Of a stretch of DNA of 64,000 bases, positions 47,624-60,330 are shown one piece after another (the stretch's first letter is position 1; the number at the start of each line of letters is the position of its first letter). Made by a program: the position numbers and the translations under genes. Below the pieces are notes generated by a model, which saw nothing but the letters and a program-made list of their open reading frames with translations, was not told the origin of the DNA and searched no databases. The stretch spans positions 144,338 through 208,337 of the forward strand of contig JAIKZI010000039.1 in NCBI GenBank assembly GCA_024682375.1, in the 5' to 3' direction. This stretch comes from Lachnospiraceae bacterium (GTDB lineage: Bacteria > Bacillota > Clostridia > Lachnospirales > Lachnospiraceae).

Positions 47624-47656
47624 AGTGCTTTCAAGGGTTAATCCTTTGAAAGCACT
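47624..47656 (+). terminator. Intrinsic terminator between convergent dprA and the DUF5662-like gene
   Basis: AGTGCTTTCAA-N-TTGAAAGCACT then TTTTTCT on plus strand; stem overlaps the 3' end of the minus-strand ORF. Confidence 0.8.
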
Positions 47657-48183
47657 TTTTCTCTGATATATTTATATGTAGCTTCTTCTCCCTGAGTTGC
47701 AACCATTGTGAGAAGTTCCTCCAGAAGTTTCTTGGAATCCTCGTGAAGAATATAATGCCACTTTCCTCTATTATAGTAGTTAAGAGCGCTATCATCTTTA
47801 TAGTCATCTCCCTGATAAACCTTCGATGCACTGATTCTATCAATAAGCATCTCAACTACATATTTTTTAGGCATCTTCATGCCTTCCATGGGATATCCCG
47901 GTTTGCTGGAATAGTCAATCCAATACTCCATGTGATGTTTGTTTCTACCCTTGTGATGAAGCCAGGCAGAGGTATATCCCTTCTCTTCTCTTTCAGCATT
48001 ATTAGGACTTCTAAATCCCTGATAATACTTCACACCAACTCGAAACTCTGTCCATGAATACTTAGATAAGTCATGTGTAAGTCCCTGCCAATATAACCCT
48101 ACTTTAAAACAACCTCTTCTAACTAACTTTCTGTGTTTATGTACTGTACTAAAATGTCCACAAAATCTCTGAAACCAATTCAT
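47638..48183 (-). CDS. HD-like metal-binding hypothetical protein (DUF5662-like)
   Basis: Conserved-looking His/Asp pattern HKHRKLV...THDLSKYSWTEF...AWLHHKGRNKHHMEYW; start immediately follows the upstream stop. Confidence 0.6.
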   Translation of the reverse strand: MNWFQRFCGHFSTVHKHRKLVRRGCFKVGLYWQGLTHDLSKYSWTEFRVGVKYYQGFRSPNNAEREEKGYTSAWLHHKGRNKHHMEYWIDYSSKPGYPMEGMKMPKKYVVEMLIDRISASKVYQGDDYKDDSALNYYNRGKWHYILHEDSKKLLEELLTMVATQGEEATYKYIREKVLSKD

Positions 48184-50028
48184 TTATTTCTCCGTATTAC
48201 CTACCAGAATAGTTAGAGTACCACCAGGCACATCTATCTCCTCCTGATTTTCTAACAATCTTCTATTTTCACCAAATACATCCTCAGAAGTATTTGAAAC
48301 GAAATGCCATTTTCTATTGTTCAAAAGTGAAGGAAGTGCAAATTTCTCGTCCTCCAAGTAGAAATTAAACAGAAGCATAACATCCTCGTCCTTAAGATTT
48401 TTTCCATAAAATCCTGCGTAAAGAATTCCTACAGCTTTTCGATCTTCAGAAAGCCATACAGTCCATGGTTCTCTTCCATGGTAGCTTAAATCAGGCAGTC
48501 CCAAATGCTTCGGATCACTCATCTCTTTAGGCATAAGAGGTGAAAGCACAGGATGACTCTTTCTAAAGCCAATAAGACTCTTTATATACTCTCTATACTC
48601 TTTCGTACGCTTTCTATTATTAAAATTCACCCAACCAATCTTATTATCCTGACAATAAGGATTATTATTTCCACTTTGAGAATTCAAGACCTCATCACCT
48701 GACTGGATCATAGGGATACTCTGGGAAAAAATAGCTGCAGCAAGCGAAGTTTTGCAGTTTTTAACCCTTGCGTTCCAAACCATTCTACTATTCGTTTCAC
48801 CCTCAGTACCGTAATTATCACTAAAGTTGAAATTATTACCGTCTCTATTTTCTTCACCATTATCAAGATTATGCTTTTCTTTATAAGAAAAACTATCCAA
48901 AAGTGTATATCCACTACTTGTAGAAGCTGCAAAATTTACAAAGCCAAACTTTTCATTCTGGCGTCTCATCATATTTGTAAATTCAATAATATTTCCATCT
49001 TTGTGATTGATAAGACGTCTAAGTGGATACATAAATCCAGTATCATCCACAAAAAGATGACGGTCCAATCCCGAATAATCATTTAAAACATTTTCAGGAT
49101 AATTGTCATAAAAGATATTTATATTAGAAAGGAATGGATCTCTTGCAATTCTTTCTATCGGACAGGTGAGTCCTATCAAATGGAATCCATCCACATGATA
49201 CTCTTTCGCCCAAAAGCGAAGGCAATCCAAAATCAAATCTTCACTGGTTCCAACAGCAAAGGACATCTCCATCACAATCTGCATATTCTTCTTATGAATA
49301 TGATGAACCATAGATCTCATATTTTCGTGGCAAGAAATTCCACCGAAATAAGAAGCCTTAGGTGCAAAATAAGAAGCTTCACCATATCCCCAATAATTCA
49401 CTTTATTACTTGGTTCGATTTTATAACGATTCCTGCCCTTCTTGTCTACATAAGGCTTTTTAGTACATAAAATCTCATCAAAATCATATAAAGGCTGAAA
49501 CTCTAGAACATTGACGCCCAATTCTGCCAGATAATTAAGTCTTTGAATAACTCCAAGATAATTACCTGCCTTGGCACTTGAAAGTGAGTGATCCATAGTA
49601 AATCCACGCATATGAAGCCTATAGATAATATAATCATTAGTACATATTTTAGGACTTACATCTTTAAAAGGTGTACCTGATTTAATGATATTTCCAAAGC
49701 AAAGAAAATTATGTTTTTTTCTACTTAAATCATTCCAATTATCTCTTCCGTACACCGAAAGTGCATAAGGATCCATACGAAGAGTTCCGTCCTCTTCGAT
49801 TAGATAACCATAGTTTTCATAGTCCAAATCAAGAACAACAATAGAACATACTCTGCCATATCTATAACTATCATCAATATCAATTTTTATCTGAGATAAA
49901 TCCTGCTTATTTATAAGAATTAGATTAACCTTCTTCTTTGTGTTTACTTCAAAAGTGAAAGTTACATTCTGTTCTTTTACAACAGCTCCAAATCTTTTAA
50001 AATCGCCTACTTTAGTTTTAAATTTCAT
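48184..50028 (-). CDS. GlgX/isoamylase-like GH13 protein lacking canonical catalytic residues (probable pseudoenzyme)
   Basis: GlgX-like framework (NFAASTSSGYTLLDSFSYKEKHNLDNGEENRDGNNFNFSDNYGTEG, SQSIPMIQSGDEVLNSQSGNNNPYCQDN) with altered regions I-IV. Confidence 0.8.
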   Translation of the reverse strand: MKFKTKVGDFKRFGAVVKEQNVTFTFEVNTKKKVNLILINKQDLSQIKIDIDDSYRYGRVCSIVVLDLDYENYGYLIEEDGTLRMDPYALSVYGRDNWNDLSRKKHNFLCFGNIIKSGTPFKDVSPKICTNDYIIYRLHMRGFTMDHSLSSAKAGNYLGVIQRLNYLAELGVNVLEFQPLYDFDEILCTKKPYVDKKGRNRYKIEPSNKVNYWGYGEASYFAPKASYFGGISCHENMRSMVHHIHKKNMQIVMEMSFAVGTSEDLILDCLRFWAKEYHVDGFHLIGLTCPIERIARDPFLSNINIFYDNYPENVLNDYSGLDRHLFVDDTGFMYPLRRLINHKDGNIIEFTNMMRRQNEKFGFVNFAASTSSGYTLLDSFSYKEKHNLDNGEENRDGNNFNFSDNYGTEGETNSRMVWNARVKNCKTSLAAAIFSQSIPMIQSGDEVLNSQSGNNNPYCQDNKIGWVNFNNRKRTKEYREYIKSLIGFRKSHPVLSPLMPKEMSDPKHLGLPDLSYHGREPWTVWLSEDRKAVGILYAGFYGKNLKDEDVMLLFNFYLEDEKFALPSLLNNRKWHFVSNTSEDVFGENRRLLENQEEIDVPGGTLTILVGNTEK

Positions 50029-53387: not shown

Positions 53388-54572
53388 TTAGGCTCTTTTA
53401 TATTGATTCAATCCGCAGAGCTTATCTACCGAATGAATAATCTCAAGTATCTCAGGAACGAAGAAATTATGTTCCTGCATAACCCTATCAATTTCATCTC
53501 TTTCGAGTTTGACAGATTCAGTATTATGGTTGATCTGGTCTCTAATCTTCTGTCGTCTAACAATGAGACGATGTTTAACCTCAACCATCTCATCATGATT
53601 TACCAAGGCTCTGGCCTGATATTCCCAAATCTTTGAATCATATAGTTTCTTCGACTCAAGGAATTCCATAAACTGTTCAACACAGAACTCCATATCTCTA
53701 TTATTTCTTCTATAGAGATCTCTTTCAGCCTTTTCAATCTGATAATTATTAAAAATATATTCCAACTCCATAGCTGACTCTACACTATAACGATTATAGA
53801 CGTAACGCACAGCATTAGTTATATTAGCATATTTCATCCTTGATGAGTTAAGCATCGGGATAATTTTGTTCAAATATTTTAAAGAACGCTTCCTTCTACG
53901 CCTGATTGATGAAGACCAGGCAAAGAACAGGGAAAAAGATACCCCGCCGAAAACAAGCAATGCCACGAAATACCATGTTATATCTTTATCCGAGGTATTG
54001 TCAAAGAAAAGAATAATAGCAAGTGCTAATAGACAGATGAAAAAAAGAAGAATCGATACAATTCTAGAATTTTTCTCCGCTCTTTTTATATTTTCTCTTT
54101 CTATTTCAATAGCATTCTTTTCACCTTCAAGATGATGCATATCCTTTTCAAGAGAATGCTGATATATCTCATTTTCCTTTAGTCTCAAAATAGTATTAGG
54201 AACATCTTCAAAATTCTCTTCCATCATAGTGTAGTTTTCTTCAGATATTCTCTTTTCTCTATGTTCAAAACTAGATCTGGAACGAGATAGCTCGACAATC
54301 TTTCCAGCTAAAACCTTAAGATCAGCTCTCTCCTCTTCAGGCATATTTTCCAAAATATCAATATCATTTAGATACTTTGTAACAATTCTATACTCTTTCT
54401 TTTCAGCCTCGATTTCTTTTGTATTAGAAACGATCTGTTCACAGGAATCTAGAATATATCTCTCCAGTTTCTTAGGATCGTCCCAATCATCAAGTGTACG
54501 TATTTCTTCTAGAGTTCGATTAAATGCCTGATCTAGATTTTCCTTCTTTTTCTTCTTACCAAATCCAAACAT
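53388..54572 (-). CDS. Uncharacterised coiled-coil protein with two central TM helices
   Basis: IVSILLFFICLLALAIILFF and ITWYFVALLVFGGVSFSLFFAW flanked by long charged coiled-coil regions. Confidence 0.65.
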   Translation of the reverse strand: MFGFGKKKKKENLDQAFNRTLEEIRTLDDWDDPKKLERYILDSCEQIVSNTKEIEAEKKEYRIVTKYLNDIDILENMPEEERADLKVLAGKIVELSRSRSSFEHREKRISEENYTMMEENFEDVPNTILRLKENEIYQHSLEKDMHHLEGEKNAIEIERENIKRAEKNSRIVSILLFFICLLALAIILFFDNTSDKDITWYFVALLVFGGVSFSLFFAWSSSIRRRRKRSLKYLNKIIPMLNSSRMKYANITNAVRYVYNRYSVESAMELEYIFNNYQIEKAERDLYRRNNRDMEFCVEQFMEFLESKKLYDSKIWEYQARALVNHDEMVEVKHRLIVRRQKIRDQINHNTESVKLERDEIDRVMQEHNFFVPEILEIIHSVDKLCGLNQYKRA

Positions 54573-54589
54573 AGTCTCTCCCCTATTAA

Positions 54590-55405
54590 TTAAATACCAC
54601 TATTCTTCTCATATTCACTTTCCCAAATGCCTACCAGAGCGGCAAGTGATTTTGGATCTTGTGAATACGCCTTTTCCACCTTGGCTTTAAAAGATTCTAC
54701 ACTCGAAGAGTTTATAGAATTATTAAATTCATCTTTAACAACTTCAACTAAATCAGGTGGAACCAGGTATCTATCTACAACAGCTTTAAATGCATTCTCA
54801 TCATTCATCAAAAGAACACAATGTAACAGAGCTTTTATAGATTCAGTACGTCTATTTTTTTCATAGGCACTATTAAAACATTCTTTAGCTTCTTCAAAGA
54901 AAAACATCCTAGAATAGCAAACACCTAAATTGTAAAAAACATCTCCTTCATTTACAACGCTTAGTTTCAAATTCTTTCTGTCTTCTAGAATTGAAGTATA
55001 TTCTAGCACCGCATCTGAAAGACGGTCAGAATGAAGCAATCTGTCTGCCCTGATTTTTCTGATTTCAGCTTCACTTTTATTTTCCAATGCCTGAATACGG
55101 TCAATTGTTTTCTTTAAATCGCTCTCAGTCAAATATCCACAATTACTTAGTAGACGTCCAACAAAAATATGTAAAGAAGCACCTTCGGCAATCAAATCAT
55201 CCAACTCACGTTTTAATGCAGGAAGATGTAATTCTTCTCCAACCCAGTTAGTAAAGTCGCCTGTCATAATATCTTCACTAAGCATATCAGTATGCTTAAA
55301 AGCTAGATGAGATAGCTCCTCTAAAGAATAGATATTTATACCGAAGTCATCCATGTAATATGGTGTTCCGGCTAAAGGAATCTTGCAAAGTATCAAATCG
55401 CCCAT
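54590..55405 (-). CDS. TPR-like repeat protein of unknown function
   Basis: GDVFYNLGVCYSRMFFFEEAKECFNSAYEKNRRTESIKALLHC TPR-like helices; adjacent to the ATPase gene. Confidence 0.65.
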   Translation of the reverse strand: MGDLILCKIPLAGTPYYMDDFGINIYSLEELSHLAFKHTDMLSEDIMTGDFTNWVGEELHLPALKRELDDLIAEGASLHIFVGRLLSNCGYLTESDLKKTIDRIQALENKSEAEIRKIRADRLLHSDRLSDAVLEYTSILEDRKNLKLSVVNEGDVFYNLGVCYSRMFFFEEAKECFNSAYEKNRRTESIKALLHCVLLMNDENAFKAVVDRYLVPPDLVEVVKDEFNNSINSSSVESFKAKVEKAYSQDPKSLAALVGIWESEYEKNSGI

Positions 55406-56640
55406 TATGCTTCCTCCTTTAGTTTGATTCTATGAACATAATTCATAGATGATCCTGGAGCTATTTCTCCAAAACCTAAATCTCTGATATTAACTTCTAC
55501 TTCCGTATCAGATACAGCTTTCGCATTTATACGAAGTCTTGTAGTTCCTTCTTCTCTATCAGGTAAATCATCTAATACAAGCTTTTCTATAGAAGCTGTC
55601 CTGCTCTCAGGTCTTTGAACCCAAAATTCAATTTCTTTAGAGCCAAACAAAATAACTTCACATTCTCCCTGACTCTGAAACCAACTTTCCCCGGCATCAA
55701 GAATTGTAAAGAACTGCATCTTATTGTCATCATTTACTTTAAGAGAAAGGTTCATCTTTAATTCATTTGAACCAATATAAACATAATTAAAATTGGAGTT
55801 TTCCTGCTTTACATATCCTGCAAAACATGCTCCCTTAGAATAAAGATTCTTTCCAATAAATACTCTTCTATTCTCTAAAAGATATTCCATGGATGATTTC
55901 ATCCACCCACCGTCAAAGCCGTCTCCTACAAGGTATACGCTAGAAATTGAATTATCTTTTAATAAAGCTCTAAGTACGCTTAAAAGAGATTCATCCTTTT
56001 TTAGTTTTCCAAGTGTATCCTTTCCAGATTTAAGCTTTACAGTAATTGGAGTTGTATGTCTATCTAAACTCAAAAAAGTATAAGCGATATCAGATTTATC
56101 ACAATCCAAAAGCAAAACATCATGCATAAAAGTTGTGGCATCCTGATTCAATGCATAATAATAAAAAGCCTCCATATAATCGATAACAAGAAGTCTATCT
56201 TCAGGCAATGACAACTTATTTGTAATAATCGAACAAAGTTCAGCCATATCCAGTGAAAGTGATGGAACTGTAATAACAAGCTTCTTAACAGAATTTGCAT
56301 TGACAGGCATTCCGGATATTTCGAGCAAATGCTTTATATAAATAGTAAGAAGATCTCTTGAAGAATAAATCTTTCCATCTATTCTTATTTCATTATTAGA
56401 TAAAGCATTATTGAGAAGATTTTCAGCCTCCTCTGCGCTGCCTTCAGCTATCATATTCTTAGCTTCTTTGCCATAGAACCACTGATCCAAGCCTTTTCTC
56501 TTTGCTAAGCAAGTAGGAATCTGAAACTCTTCACTTCCCATAACAGTACTTACGCTTCCTGGTTCTTTCATGGAAGAATTGTAATAGCTCAATATTGTAT
56601 TTTTAATTCCTAAATCAATTCCGAAAAAAATGCCTTCCAC
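55405..56640 (-). CDS. Hsp70/actin-like ATPase-fold protein (DUF5716-like)
   Basis: FFGIDLGIKNTILSYY phosphate-1, VITVPSLSLD, SSVYLVGDGFDGGWM adenosine motif, KGACFAGY; C-terminal RLRINAKAV...IRDLGFGEIAPGS. Confidence 0.75.
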   Translation of the reverse strand: MEGIFFGIDLGIKNTILSYYNSSMKEPGSVSTVMGSEEFQIPTCLAKRKGLDQWFYGKEAKNMIAEGSAEEAENLLNNALSNNEIRIDGKIYSSRDLLTIYIKHLLEISGMPVNANSVKKLVITVPSLSLDMAELCSIITNKLSLPEDRLLVIDYMEAFYYYALNQDATTFMHDVLLLDCDKSDIAYTFLSLDRHTTPITVKLKSGKDTLGKLKKDESLLSVLRALLKDNSISSVYLVGDGFDGGWMKSSMEYLLENRRVFIGKNLYSKGACFAGYVKQENSNFNYVYIGSNELKMNLSLKVNDDNKMQFFTILDAGESWFQSQGECEVILFGSKEIEFWVQRPESRTASIEKLVLDDLPDREEGTTRLRINAKAVSDTEVEVNIRDLGFGEIAPGSSMNYVHRIKLKEEA

Positions 56641-56658
56641 TACTTCTCTCCAAAAATT

Positions 56659-59600
56659 CTACAAACCAGAAAACAAATCTCTAGTAACAATATCCAAGCT
56701 TCCATATTCACTGAGCGAATTCTTTAAATCCAGATTCTCTGAAAGCATCATTGAATACTTCATATGATTGATTCTATCAAATCTACCCTCTTCCTGCTTC
56801 TCAAAATAATCAGGTCCAGATATTCTTCCTTCTTTTATAACCTCGCCATCTTTTTTCCCTTCAATAATCTTATAAGTAATAATATCTCCGGTAAAAAGCA
56901 CGAACATACGAATATATAATCCAGAATAAACTTCCGGCAAAGGAACAGTATATTCCTCATTATCATTCTTTTTTATTCTACAGAAAAGTCTAGCTCCGGT
57001 TTTATAAGGAATGCTTATAAAACTTCTATCATTCAAGTGATATTTAATACGCAGTCCCTTAGGCGCTGATTTAAAGAACGGGAATCTGATATTTCTAGAG
57101 ATATAATATCTCAAATACTTATCCAAAGTCTTATACTCTTCTTTTGAAAGGTTTTCCTGTTCACAAAGGAACTTGATAAGTGAGATTCTCATACTATCAT
57201 TAACATTATCATCTAAAACGACTGAACGATAAAGTTCATTAATAAAACAATCAGGAAGTGCAGCATCTGAAAGAATGTTTTCTCTACTCCAGAATGTCAA
57301 AAAGGCTTCCTTCACCATCCTATTATGTCTGTCTCCAAGAAATGCTTTAAAAATATCTTCTGGGAAATGTTCCTTAAAAGATGTGTAAATCATCTGGAAA
57401 ATGATTCTCTCAGCAAATCCTTCCTGTTTAACATCACATTCTTTGCATACGGAAAAAATCTTCTCCATACACTCTGTTGCACCGGAATAAAACTTTGCCA
57501 AATAGCTTGCACTCGCCTGCGAAGCATAACCCTTCATAAGTAAATTTGAAGCCAAAAGTAATAATGTATCATCTGATGCAAACTCTAAGTAAACAATCAT
57601 TACATTTACAAGATTGAGCATAAGTTTCGGATCACAATCTGAAGCATCAACCACCTTTATATACTCATAAGCTTCTTCAAATTTATGAGATCTAATCGCA
57701 TAAGATACTATCTCTTTTACAATATATTTAGGTAGAGAAAGCTTATTTCTTCTAGTCCAAATATATGAAAGAATAATATCCTCTTTCATATTGTCTTTTA
57801 AAAGAGCATATATTTCATCATAACGTCTAACCAAGAAATCAGAGTCAAAATCACTATTCTTAAATATAGATTCAATAAACGGAATATCCTTGTTTGTAAA
57901 AGCTACATTCTCATCTTCTCTTGTAAGATTATAAAGCATAGCAGGAACAGAATGACTATATCTTTCCGGAAGCATTCCATCATCTGTATCCAATCTAATA
58001 ATAGGATCCATGACATATAATTCTCTATCACTATGAACTGTACCGTCCATATCGACAAGGAATATTCTATAGTTCTTATCTGTTATAGGTACATATGCAA
58101 TATTATTAACTATAGGGCATACTACAGATTTTCTATAGCAATCCTGATACAAAATAATCTGTTTTGCTTCTTCTCTCAAAACTGCAACACGATTGATAAA
58201 CAAAAATGGAACAACAAGTTCAGAAAAAGCTGCAAAATTATGATTATGATCCATCATCTCCTGATAAATCACAGTGAGATTATCATCAATTCTCTCCTGT
58301 TGCATCTCTGCAAGCGCAAAGCTTTCAATATCAGGTAAATACTCTCTATATAATCTTGGATGTTTGTTCTGATTTGCAATCATAGCAACATAGAGAAAAG
58401 CTCTTCTTTCTATGCTTAGATTACTTGGATATCTAAAATATAAAAGTACAGATTCTGGGATTTCTTCTACACTATCAAGTGGAAGAGAGTTTAAATATGC
58501 CTCAAATAAACCAGAAACATTGATTCCCTCTTCAATACCCTTTTTATACCATTTTGAATATTCTTTAGAAAACTTCTCATTTTTAATTAGATAATTCAAA
58601 ATAGCTTCTAATAATTCAAAAGAACTATCCGTCTTATATGCAGTGGTTACTATTTCAAATACAATTCTATCGAATCCTTCACTTGCCCTGAGTAATCCAG
58701 CTAAAACAGAAATAATATCCATAGTAAAAGAATGATTCTTTCTGCCAAAGTTTAAAACTTTTACAGTAAATGGATCAAAACTCTGAACCAGATAAGGATG
58801 TAATTTAAATACATCTAATGCTTCTTCAAGAAGAAATGAAGAAACATATCCTGAATTTACCCACTGTTTAATATCTCTAAGTTTTCTGGCAGGATCATCC
58901 ATATATTCTTTTCTAAGATACAATAAAAATAGGAAAATTCGAGAATCCTCAGAATTCATTCTAAAAATCTTCTCTATTTCATCTGTAAGCTTTTCCTGAT
59001 AATGCTCATCAGGATCTATAAGAATACATAAATATAAAAGATAAGCCCATTCAAACTTACTATGATCTTTGATATCAGCCTTTAAATCTCTAATAAGCCA
59101 AAGAGCTTTTTGTCTCTCTCCATTTAGAATTCTGACATGAGAAAGCAATAATCTATCTAATATAGGCATACGATATGAAATATATTCTTCCTCATCTTCA
59201 GATGGTTTTCTGTCTAAATCTAAATCCCAGGTCTTCTCTTTTCTTTCGTGAATCTTTCCTTCATCATCGAAATAAATAGCTGCATCGCTAATAGAATTCT
59301 GGGATTCCTCTATTTTAAAGGAAATAATTAAATTTTGATATAATTTCTTGCTTAAGGCTGCAATACCCAGATTTCCAGTTCTATAAGATATCACATCTCT
59401 TAAAATTTCTGTACGAATTCTCTTCTTTCGAATCTCTAATTTTCTTTCACAATAATCCTCATCCAAAAGATTTGCATCGACAAAAACACTTCTATAAGTA
59501 GAGCCATCATAAAACTTGATTTCTCCACGATTCTTACCTTTATGCATTTTTTCCGTACGAATATAAAACTTATAATCGTACTCTCTTCCTAAGAATTCAT

Positions 59601-60330
59601 TTTCAGTAATTCTTCTCAAAGGTAAGTCAATAAAACTAGATGATGTAGTAATAAATAAATCGAGCTTTCCCCAGCTGGATCTAGTGATATTAATTGTGCC
59701 TCTCTGATCATCTGTAATATCATTAAACTCGATATTTTTAGCATCTAGTGTATAAGTTAATTTTGTATTTAATTTTGTTTCTTCAAGGAAATGCTGAAGA
59801 TTAATACCTGATGGTACAGCTTTTTGATATCCCTTATATAATACTCTGATATCTACCGGCTGTTTTTTTATAAATCTTTCAAATGTACGCGTTCTAAATA
59901 ACGTCAAGCCTTCGTTAAAATCAATTTCACAAAGCTTGCCGAAATCTTCTAACGTTTTGATTTCTCCTATAGATGAAATAAGTGGAGATGATTTGAAAGT
60001 GAATTTAAATGGGACTCTTACTTCGCCCATATTATAGACAACATCAAAATACCCTGTGAGTTCATCCACAGAGGTAAAAGAATTTGTAAGTGTATGGAAA
60101 GAAATATCTACACTCTTTCCATCAAAAGTTGGATTATCGATGCACACATAAGGGCTAGATGCATATACATAGCCCTTTATGTCCACATCATTTTTCGAAC
60201 CAATGGTAAAAGAGCCAGATATAATCTGCTCCTCATTACCATCTAATTCGATATTAGAAGGAGAAATATTAAGTTCTGGTTTTAAATCCTCAAACCTATC
60301 TTCTGAAATTTTCCAGATTCGCCTTTTCAA
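56659..60330 (-). CDS. Giant uncharacterised protein, N-terminal Ig-like beta domain plus long helical region (DUF5717-like), TTG start
   Basis: 1223 aa intact ORF; N-terminus LNISPSNIELDGNEEQIISGSFTIGSKNDVDIKGYVYASSPYVCIDNPTF...GEVRVPFKFTF resembles a beta-sandwich; the rest is mostly helical. Confidence 0.75.
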   Translation of the reverse strand: MKRRIWKISEDRFEDLKPELNISPSNIELDGNEEQIISGSFTIGSKNDVDIKGYVYASSPYVCIDNPTFDGKSVDISFHTLTNSFTSVDELTGYFDVVYNMGEVRVPFKFTFKSSPLISSIGEIKTLEDFGKLCEIDFNEGLTLFRTRTFERFIKKQPVDIRVLYKGYQKAVPSGINLQHFLEETKLNTKLTYTLDAKNIEFNDITDDQRGTINITRSSWGKLDLFITTSSSFIDLPLRRITENEFLGREYDYKFYIRTEKMHKGKNRGEIKFYDGSTYRSVFVDANLLDEDYCERKLEIRKKRIRTEILRDVISYRTGNLGIAALSKKLYQNLIISFKIEESQNSISDAAIYFDDEGKIHERKEKTWDLDLDRKPSEDEEEYISYRMPILDRLLLSHVRILNGERQKALWLIRDLKADIKDHSKFEWAYLLYLCILIDPDEHYQEKLTDEIEKIFRMNSEDSRIFLFLLYLRKEYMDDPARKLRDIKQWVNSGYVSSFLLEEALDVFKLHPYLVQSFDPFTVKVLNFGRKNHSFTMDIISVLAGLLRASEGFDRIVFEIVTTAYKTDSSFELLEAILNYLIKNEKFSKEYSKWYKKGIEEGINVSGLFEAYLNSLPLDSVEEIPESVLLYFRYPSNLSIERRAFLYVAMIANQNKHPRLYREYLPDIESFALAEMQQERIDDNLTVIYQEMMDHNHNFAAFSELVVPFLFINRVAVLREEAKQIILYQDCYRKSVVCPIVNNIAYVPITDKNYRIFLVDMDGTVHSDRELYVMDPIIRLDTDDGMLPERYSHSVPAMLYNLTREDENVAFTNKDIPFIESIFKNSDFDSDFLVRRYDEIYALLKDNMKEDIILSYIWTRRNKLSLPKYIVKEIVSYAIRSHKFEEAYEYIKVVDASDCDPKLMLNLVNVMIVYLEFASDDTLLLLASNLLMKGYASQASASYLAKFYSGATECMEKIFSVCKECDVKQEGFAERIIFQMIYTSFKEHFPEDIFKAFLGDRHNRMVKEAFLTFWSRENILSDAALPDCFINELYRSVVLDDNVNDSMRISLIKFLCEQENLSKEEYKTLDKYLRYYISRNIRFPFFKSAPKGLRIKYHLNDRSFISIPYKTGARLFCRIKKNDNEEYTVPLPEVYSGLYIRMFVLFTGDIITYKIIEGKKDGEVIKEGRISGPDYFEKQEEGRFDRINHMKYSMMLSENLDLKNSLSEYGSLDIVTRDLFSGL

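What the first reader, a model, noticed from the sequence alone, without database searches (positions are those of the whole stretch)
48184..50028. GlgX/GH13-like protein with every catalytic region altered: probable carbohydrate-sensing pseudoenzyme
The sequence keeps GlgX landmarks (HNLDNGEENRDGNNFNFSDNYGTEGETN and IPMIQSGDE). Where active GH13_11 enzymes have DVVYNH (I), GFRFD (II, nucleophile), AEPWD (III, acid/base) and F(V)xxHD (IV), this protein has EMSFAV, GFHLIG, IFYDNY and NFAASTSS. The nucleophile Asp, acid/base Glu and transition-state Asp all appear to be missing. An intact 614-aa ORF argues for selection rather than decay.
Basis: partly seen in the sequence, partly recalled or inferred. 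Interest (0 to 1): 0.78.

Follow-up and report, generated by a model that had tools for sequence, protein, structure and literature searches.

The report
Family-wide dead glycogen-debranching enzyme (pseudo-GlgX)
Most genera of the gut and rumen bacterial family Lachnospiraceae carry a protein built like the glycogen-debranching enzyme GlgX but with its catalytic machinery removed and much of its sugar-contacting surface kept under strong selection, so it probably binds glycogen or short glucans and helps control them rather than cutting them.

Summary
The intact 614-aa ORF (48184-50028, minus strand) has the GlgX/isoamylase fold (AlphaFold pLDDT 86.8; best PDB match Streptomyces GlgX) but none of the GH13 catalytic residues. 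It is not an isolated decayed gene. About 224 of 299 sampled genera of the family have a full-length orthologue. All 69 orthologues aligned lack the nucleophile Asp and share a ~44-residue loop deletion next to the active site, while 77 true GlgX proteins all keep the nucleophile Asp and acid/base Glu. The orthologues form one clade that nests among active GlgX, which suggests one ancestral loss. dN/dS is 0.06-0.10 in close pairs. Glucan-contact residues away from the catalytic centre (Trp213, Glu392, Asn456, Tyr458) are invariant. No full-length orthologue was found in other families of the order or class. The gene usually sits directly upstream of a DUF5662 gene; in two genomes it lies beside a true GlgX gene. 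The window's genome encodes glycogen synthase, phosphorylase and branching enzyme, but no recognisable GlgX, pullulanase or GDE_C. Best reading: a non-catalytic glucan-binding regulator or scaffold of glycogen metabolism, a bacterial analogue of plant isoamylase 2. "Pseudoenzyme" is strongly supported; "glucan-binding regulator" is inference. I found no previous description.

The parts
48184..50028 (-). pseudo-GlgX: GlgX/isoamylase-fold protein, 614 aa, without GH13 catalytic residues
49235..49276 (-). remnant of CSR I (QIVMEMSFAVGTSE, residues 251-264) and the shortened beta4-beta5 loop; about 44 residues shorter than in active GlgX
   Evidence: CSR I to CSR II distance 28-30 aa in 69/69 pseudo against 70-75 aa in 77 active
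49160..49195 (-). remnant of CSR II (VDGFHLIGLTCP, residues 278-289); nucleophile Asp absent
48637..48870 (-). retained GlgX signature block (HNLDNGEENRDGN...NYGTEG through GDE...GNNNPYCQDN, residues 386-463) holding invariant Glu392, Asn456, Tyr458, equivalent to glucan-contact residues of Streptomyces GlgX
   Evidence: contacts from PMC9530166
47638..48183 (-). DUF5662 (PF18907) protein, 181 aa; start codon directly abuts the pseudo-GlgX stop; probable co-transcribed partner of unknown function
47624..47656 (.). terminator-like inverted repeat (14 pairs) at the end of the pseudo-GlgX/DUF5662 pair, shared with the convergent dprA gene
   Evidence: consensus scan only

Best explanation
The gene encodes a catalytically dead paralogue of the glycogen-debranching enzyme GlgX that arose once at or near the origin of Lachnospiraceae and has been kept since. 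Shown by sequence and structure prediction: GlgX fold, complete loss of the GH13 nucleophile, loss of the other catalytic motifs, constant loop deletion, retention of several glucan-contact residues, purifying selection. Inferred: the protein still binds alpha-glucan chains through the remaining cleft and works as a non-catalytic subunit, scaffold or glucan-occupancy sensor for cytoplasmic glycogen metabolism, acting through partner proteins (true GlgX where present; otherwise glycogen phosphorylase, synthase or another GH13 enzyme; possibly the co-encoded DUF5662 protein). It would work like plant isoamylase 2 (ISA2).
For: Fold: AF2 pLDDT 86.8, pTM 0.89; Foldseek best matches Streptomyces GlgX 7u3d/7u3b, TreX and plant ISA1, TM about 0.8, E 1e-40 to 1e-44. 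Catalytic loss: nucleophile column empty in 69/69, His271 lost, CSR III motif lost, CSR IV Asp lost in 62/69; nucleophile and acid/base intact in all 77 active GlgX. Retained sugar contacts: Trp213 69/69, Tyr215 62/69 (7 Phe), Glu392 69/69, Asn456 69/69, Tyr458 69/69, equivalent to W222, Y224, E470, N534, Y536 that contact acarbose in Streptomyces GlgX. One clade, nested among active GlgX when rooted on pullulanases. dN/dS 0.056, 0.104, 0.058 in close pairs. About 224 of 299 genera, 9 of 9 genomes of its own genus; no full-length member in other families of the order or class. Glycogen genes: glgA in 146/150 and glgP in 143/150 family genomes, both in this genome. In one genome pseudo-GlgX lies in a same-strand run with a true GlgX gene; in another the two are convergent about 2 kb apart. 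Precedent: plant ISA2 is a selected, non-catalytic GH13_11 paralogue acting in complex with ISA1 (PMC12510319).
Against: No binding data. The gene is not usually clustered with glg genes; its commonest neighbours are DUF5662, uvrD and gltX. Active GlgX is absent from 83 of 125 pseudo-positive genomes, so an obligate ISA1-like partner cannot be GlgX in most species. Nearly all pseudo-negative genomes still have glgA, so it is not needed for glycogen synthesis. An N-terminal CBM48 is recognisable in only 1 of 24 members. Retained contacts could be structural.
Confidence: 0.55

Rival explanations
1. The protein has moved away from glucans: it is a fold-only regulator or adaptor whose real function is set by its co-encoded partner DUF5662 (and, in some species, TraX), for example controlling a putative metal-dependent hydrolase at the membrane.
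For: DUF5662 is downstream on the same strand in 49/71 loci, directly next in 38 and often overlapping; adjacent in 44 of 66 genomes that have both and were checked; co-occurrence odds ratio 4.5, p 0.003; the pair survives where uvrD/gltX synteny is broken. DUF5662 has invariant His/Asp/Glu residues compatible with a metal site.
Against: DUF5662 also occurs in genomes without pseudo-GlgX and is often unlinked. Its predicted structure matches no solved fold significantly, so a hydrolase role is speculative. It would not explain why glucan-contact residues stay invariant.
Confidence: 0.2
2. It is an enzyme after all, with a relocated catalytic apparatus, and supplies the debranching activity missing in species without GlgX, pullulanase or GDE_C.
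For: 58 of 125 pseudo-positive genomes, including this one, have no recognisable GlgX, pullulanase or GDE_C yet nearly all have glycogen phosphorylase. Acidic residues Glu392, Asp445, Glu446, Asp461 and the clade-specific Asp505 are conserved.
Against: The universally required GH13 nucleophile is deleted in every member, and the acid/base motif is gone. The residue replacing the CSR I Asp varies (E 48, Q 14, D 6, S 1). Other GH13 enzymes in this genome keep intact motifs and could act on alpha-1,6 bonds. Most of the conserved acids are also invariant in active GlgX.
Confidence: 0.05
3. A stand-alone glucan sensor that binds a small messenger such as c-di-GMP, as Streptomyces GlgX does, and signals carbon status.
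For: The best structural match is the c-di-GMP-binding Streptomyces GlgX (PMC9530166).
Against: In that study the binding residues (E47, R49, R56, R438, R579) are not conserved even in E. coli GlgX or a Streptomyces paralogue, and I saw no sign of them in the conserved blocks here. Structural rank alone says nothing about ligand.
Confidence: 0.05
4. Ordinary pseudogene or assembly error.
For: Loss of catalytic residues alone would fit a decaying gene.
Against: Intact ORFs in nearly all loci, dN/dS about 0.06-0.10, a clade that keeps 43 of 114 active-GlgX-invariant positions at 90% or more, presence in about 224 genera.
Confidence: 0.01

Closest known systems
GlgX/TreX/isoamylase, CAZy GH13_11 (NCBIfam TIGR02100)
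   Same: Overall fold, GlgX signature blocks, several glucan-contact residues; derived from this family by phylogeny.
   Different: No catalytic Asp/Glu/Asp; ~44-aa deletion between beta4 and beta5; scores 230 bits against a 641-bit family cut-off.
Plant isoamylase 2 (ISA2)
   Same: Non-catalytic GH13_11 paralogue with the nucleophile and other catalytic residues substituted, retained across a whole lineage.
   Different: Apparently independent origin (similarity to ISA1 and bacterial GlgX much stronger than to ISA2); bacterial; most genomes lack the active GlgX partner; different substitutions and a loop deletion.
GlgD, inactive regulatory paralogue of GlgC in Firmicutes (own knowledge)
   Same: Dead paralogue retained to regulate glycogen metabolism in the same bacteria.
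   Different: Unrelated enzyme family; GlgD is clustered with glgC.
4F2hc/rBAT transporter heavy chains (GH13-like, own knowledge)
   Same: GH13 fold without glycosidase activity.
   Different: Animal membrane glycoproteins, oligo-1,6-glucosidase-like rather than isoamylase-like.

Membership tests
GH13_11 glycogen debranching enzyme GlgX | Catalytic nucleophile Asp, acid/base Glu, transition-state Asp in CSR II, III, IV | tested here: not met
   nucleophile absent in 69/69; CSR III motif absent; CSR IV Asp in 7/69 and not in the window protein
GH13_11 glycogen debranching enzyme GlgX | Score over the curated TIGR02100 cut-off | tested here: not met
   229.9 bits against 640.9
GH13_11 glycogen debranching enzyme GlgX | N-domain, (beta/alpha)8 barrel, C-domain fold and GlgX signature blocks | tested here: met
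GH13_11 glycogen debranching enzyme GlgX | alpha-1,6-glucosidase activity | not testable with these tools
   needs biochemistry; mechanism predicts none
ISA2-like non-catalytic isoamylase | GH13_11-derived, catalytic residues substituted, selected over a whole lineage | tested here: met
ISA2-like non-catalytic isoamylase | Orthology with plant ISA2 | tested here: inconclusive
   ISA2 chains match far more weakly (1.5e-15) than ISA1 or GlgX (about 1e-43), which speaks against it, but no tree with ISA2 was built
ISA2-like non-catalytic isoamylase | Forms a complex with an active isoamylase and changes glucan binding | not testable with these tools
   only indirect: 42 of 45 GlgX-positive genomes also have the pseudoenzyme (p 0.03)

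The most novel reading that the evidence does not exclude
A lineage-defining bacterial pseudo-isoamylase that senses or scaffolds glycogen and, in species with no canonical debranching enzyme, organises an alternative route of glycogen breakdown together with DUF5662.
Probability: 0.2. Interest if true: 0.82.

Novelty: new variant of a known kind. Interest (0 to 1): 0.6.

Why it matters
Plant ISA2 has posed the question of why a dead isoamylase is kept; a 2025 paper states this 'is not understood' (PMC12510319). A second, apparently independent case in bacteria makes the question testable in small, fast-growing systems. It also affects annotation: such genes are probably counted as glgX, so the glycogen-breakdown capacity of gut Lachnospiraceae is overstated. 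In Butyrivibrio hungatei a 648-aa GH13 protein without CBM48 is listed as glgX2 (PMC5716241); I infer from its size and missing CBM48 that it belongs here. About half of the pseudo-positive genomes checked have no recognisable GlgX, pullulanase or GDE_C, so how they debranch glycogen is open.

Tried and rejected
Pseudogene or assembly error: rejected. Co-occurrence with glgA and glgP: uninformative because both are near-universal. HD-type hydrolase for DUF5662: suggested by conserved His/Asp, but no solved fold matched and no PDB sequence relative was found, so not claimed. c-di-GMP binding: no support beyond structural rank. dN/dS using the window gene itself: its relatives are only about 47-56% identical, so close pairs elsewhere in the clade were used instead. 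Literature: searches for a bacterial GH13 pseudoenzyme and for DUF5662 found nothing relevant.

Full report
Observation. The 614-aa ORF at 48184-50028 (minus strand) is intact. Its best family matches are weak: Pfam alpha-amylase 24.8 bits and GlgX TIGR02100 229.9 bits against a cut-off of 640.9. The solved relatives are GlgX, TreX and plant isoamylase.

It is a family-wide trait. A protein search gave matches in 247 of 299 genera of the family, some of them true GlgX. A profile of 24 orthologues (A1) gives full-length matches at E below 1e-130 in about 224 of 299 genera; 56 clearly lack it and 19 are intermediate (these groups were counted by hand from the listed E-values). All 9 genomes of the window's genus have it. 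No full-length match occurs in the other families sampled in the order or class; there the profile finds true GlgX, usually broken in two at the position of the loop that the pseudoenzymes lack. Named pseudoenzyme loci are mostly Lachnospiraceae (Roseburia, Pseudobutyrivibrio, Dorea, Oribacterium, Velocimicrobium), with a few carrying only broad or uncertain names; that the coded family is Lachnospiraceae is inferred from these names.

Anatomy. In 69 pseudoenzymes against 77 active GlgX the nucleophile column is empty in 69/69 against Asp in 77/77. The CSR I His is lost. The CSR III motif is lost, although this region aligns uncertainly and 12 rows show a Glu outside any motif. The CSR IV Asp is kept in only 7. 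The stretch from CSR I to CSR II is 28-30 residues in every pseudoenzyme and 70-75 in every active enzyme, a constant deletion. In contrast, residues equivalent to the acarbose-contacting W222, Y224, E470, N534 and Y536 of Streptomyces GlgX (contacts from PMC9530166; mapping) are Trp 69/69, Tyr 62 plus Phe 7, Glu 69/69, Asn 69/69 and Tyr 69/69. The position of E470 is itself Trp or Glu among active enzymes, so its retention is weaker evidence than the others. R212 lies in a variable loop and is not retained in the window protein. The AlphaFold model is confident (pLDDT 86.8, pTM 0.89) and its best solved matches are GlgX, TreX and ISA1.

History and selection. The pseudoenzymes form one clade with SH-aLRT 100 (61 against 62 rows) and, rooted on pullulanases, nest among active GlgX. 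These are quick trees with long branches, so nesting is likely rather than proven. Nei-Gojobori dN/dS is 0.056, 0.104 and 0.058 for the three closest pairs; dS is already high (1.5) in the third. The gene is under purifying selection.

Context. In 71 loci a DUF5662 gene lies downstream on the same strand in 49, directly next in 38, often overlapping by 4 bases; in most of the other 11 a TraX-family gene intervenes. Of 66 genomes with both genes whose coordinates I tabulated, 44 have them within 4 kb. The pair persists where the flanking gltX-uvrD or comM-dprA order is lost. In the window the DUF5662 start codon follows the pseudo-GlgX stop without a gap, and a terminator-like repeat follows. 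DUF5662 is helical with invariant His/Asp/Glu residues, but no solved structure matches and no paper in the held library mentions it. In one genome a true GlgX, an ABC-F protein, the pseudoenzyme and TraX follow each other on one strand. In a second a true GlgX gene lies convergent to the pseudo-GlgX/DUF5662 pair, about 2 kb from pseudo-GlgX.

Glycogen setting. glgA is over cut-off in 146 and glgP in 143 of 150 family genomes. True GlgX is in 45 genomes (strong matches counted by hand, not all over the curated cut-off), type I pullulanase in 36 and full-length GDE_C (PF06202) in 27. 58 of 125 pseudo-positive genomes, including this one, have none of the three (a few intermediate genomes were assigned by judgement). 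This genome is 93.8% complete, so single absences are not certain, and other GH13 enzymes with intact motifs are present. The association with true GlgX is weak (42/125 against 3/25, p 0.03) and may only reflect how many GH13 genes a genome has.

Interpretation. That the protein is a pseudoenzyme by the GH13 mechanism is, in my view, about 95% sure. That it binds glucan and regulates or scaffolds glycogen metabolism is the best inference (about 55%), by retained contacts and by analogy with plant ISA2, a non-catalytic isoamylase selected in green plants and algae (PMC12510319). A function centred on DUF5662 is the main rival.

Novelty. I found no description of such a bacterial family, within the limits of an open-access library. 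Published genome accounts probably list members as glgX: Butyrivibrio hungatei glgX2, 648 aa, GH13 without CBM48 (PMC5716241), and perhaps the second glgX of Blautia obeum (PMC10395257). I did not retrieve those sequences.

Noticed in passing
window 47638-48183 and relatives (A2): DUF5662 protein: highly conserved (invariant HD, HHKGRN-HH, E-W, DR motifs), confident all-helical model, no solved structural relative and no literature found.
   Followed up: partly
window genome (G000): Glycogen synthase, phosphorylase and branching enzyme are present, but no recognisable GlgX, pullulanase or GDE_C; the same holds for 58 of 125 pseudo-positive family genomes checked.
   Followed up: partly
window 53388-60330: Run of same-strand genes of unknown function upstream of gltX (unknown 394 aa, TPR-like 271 aa, DUF5716, DUF5717) that partly recurs in related loci.
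   Followed up: no
L218:7149-13738: True GlgX, ABC-F protein, pseudo-GlgX and TraX on one strand, with overlapping or closely spaced reading frames.
   Followed up: partly
L191, L192, L193, L084, L101: A shorter subgroup of the pseudoenzyme (about 560-570 aa) in which a periplasmic-binding-protein-like gene lies directly upstream.
   Followed up: no
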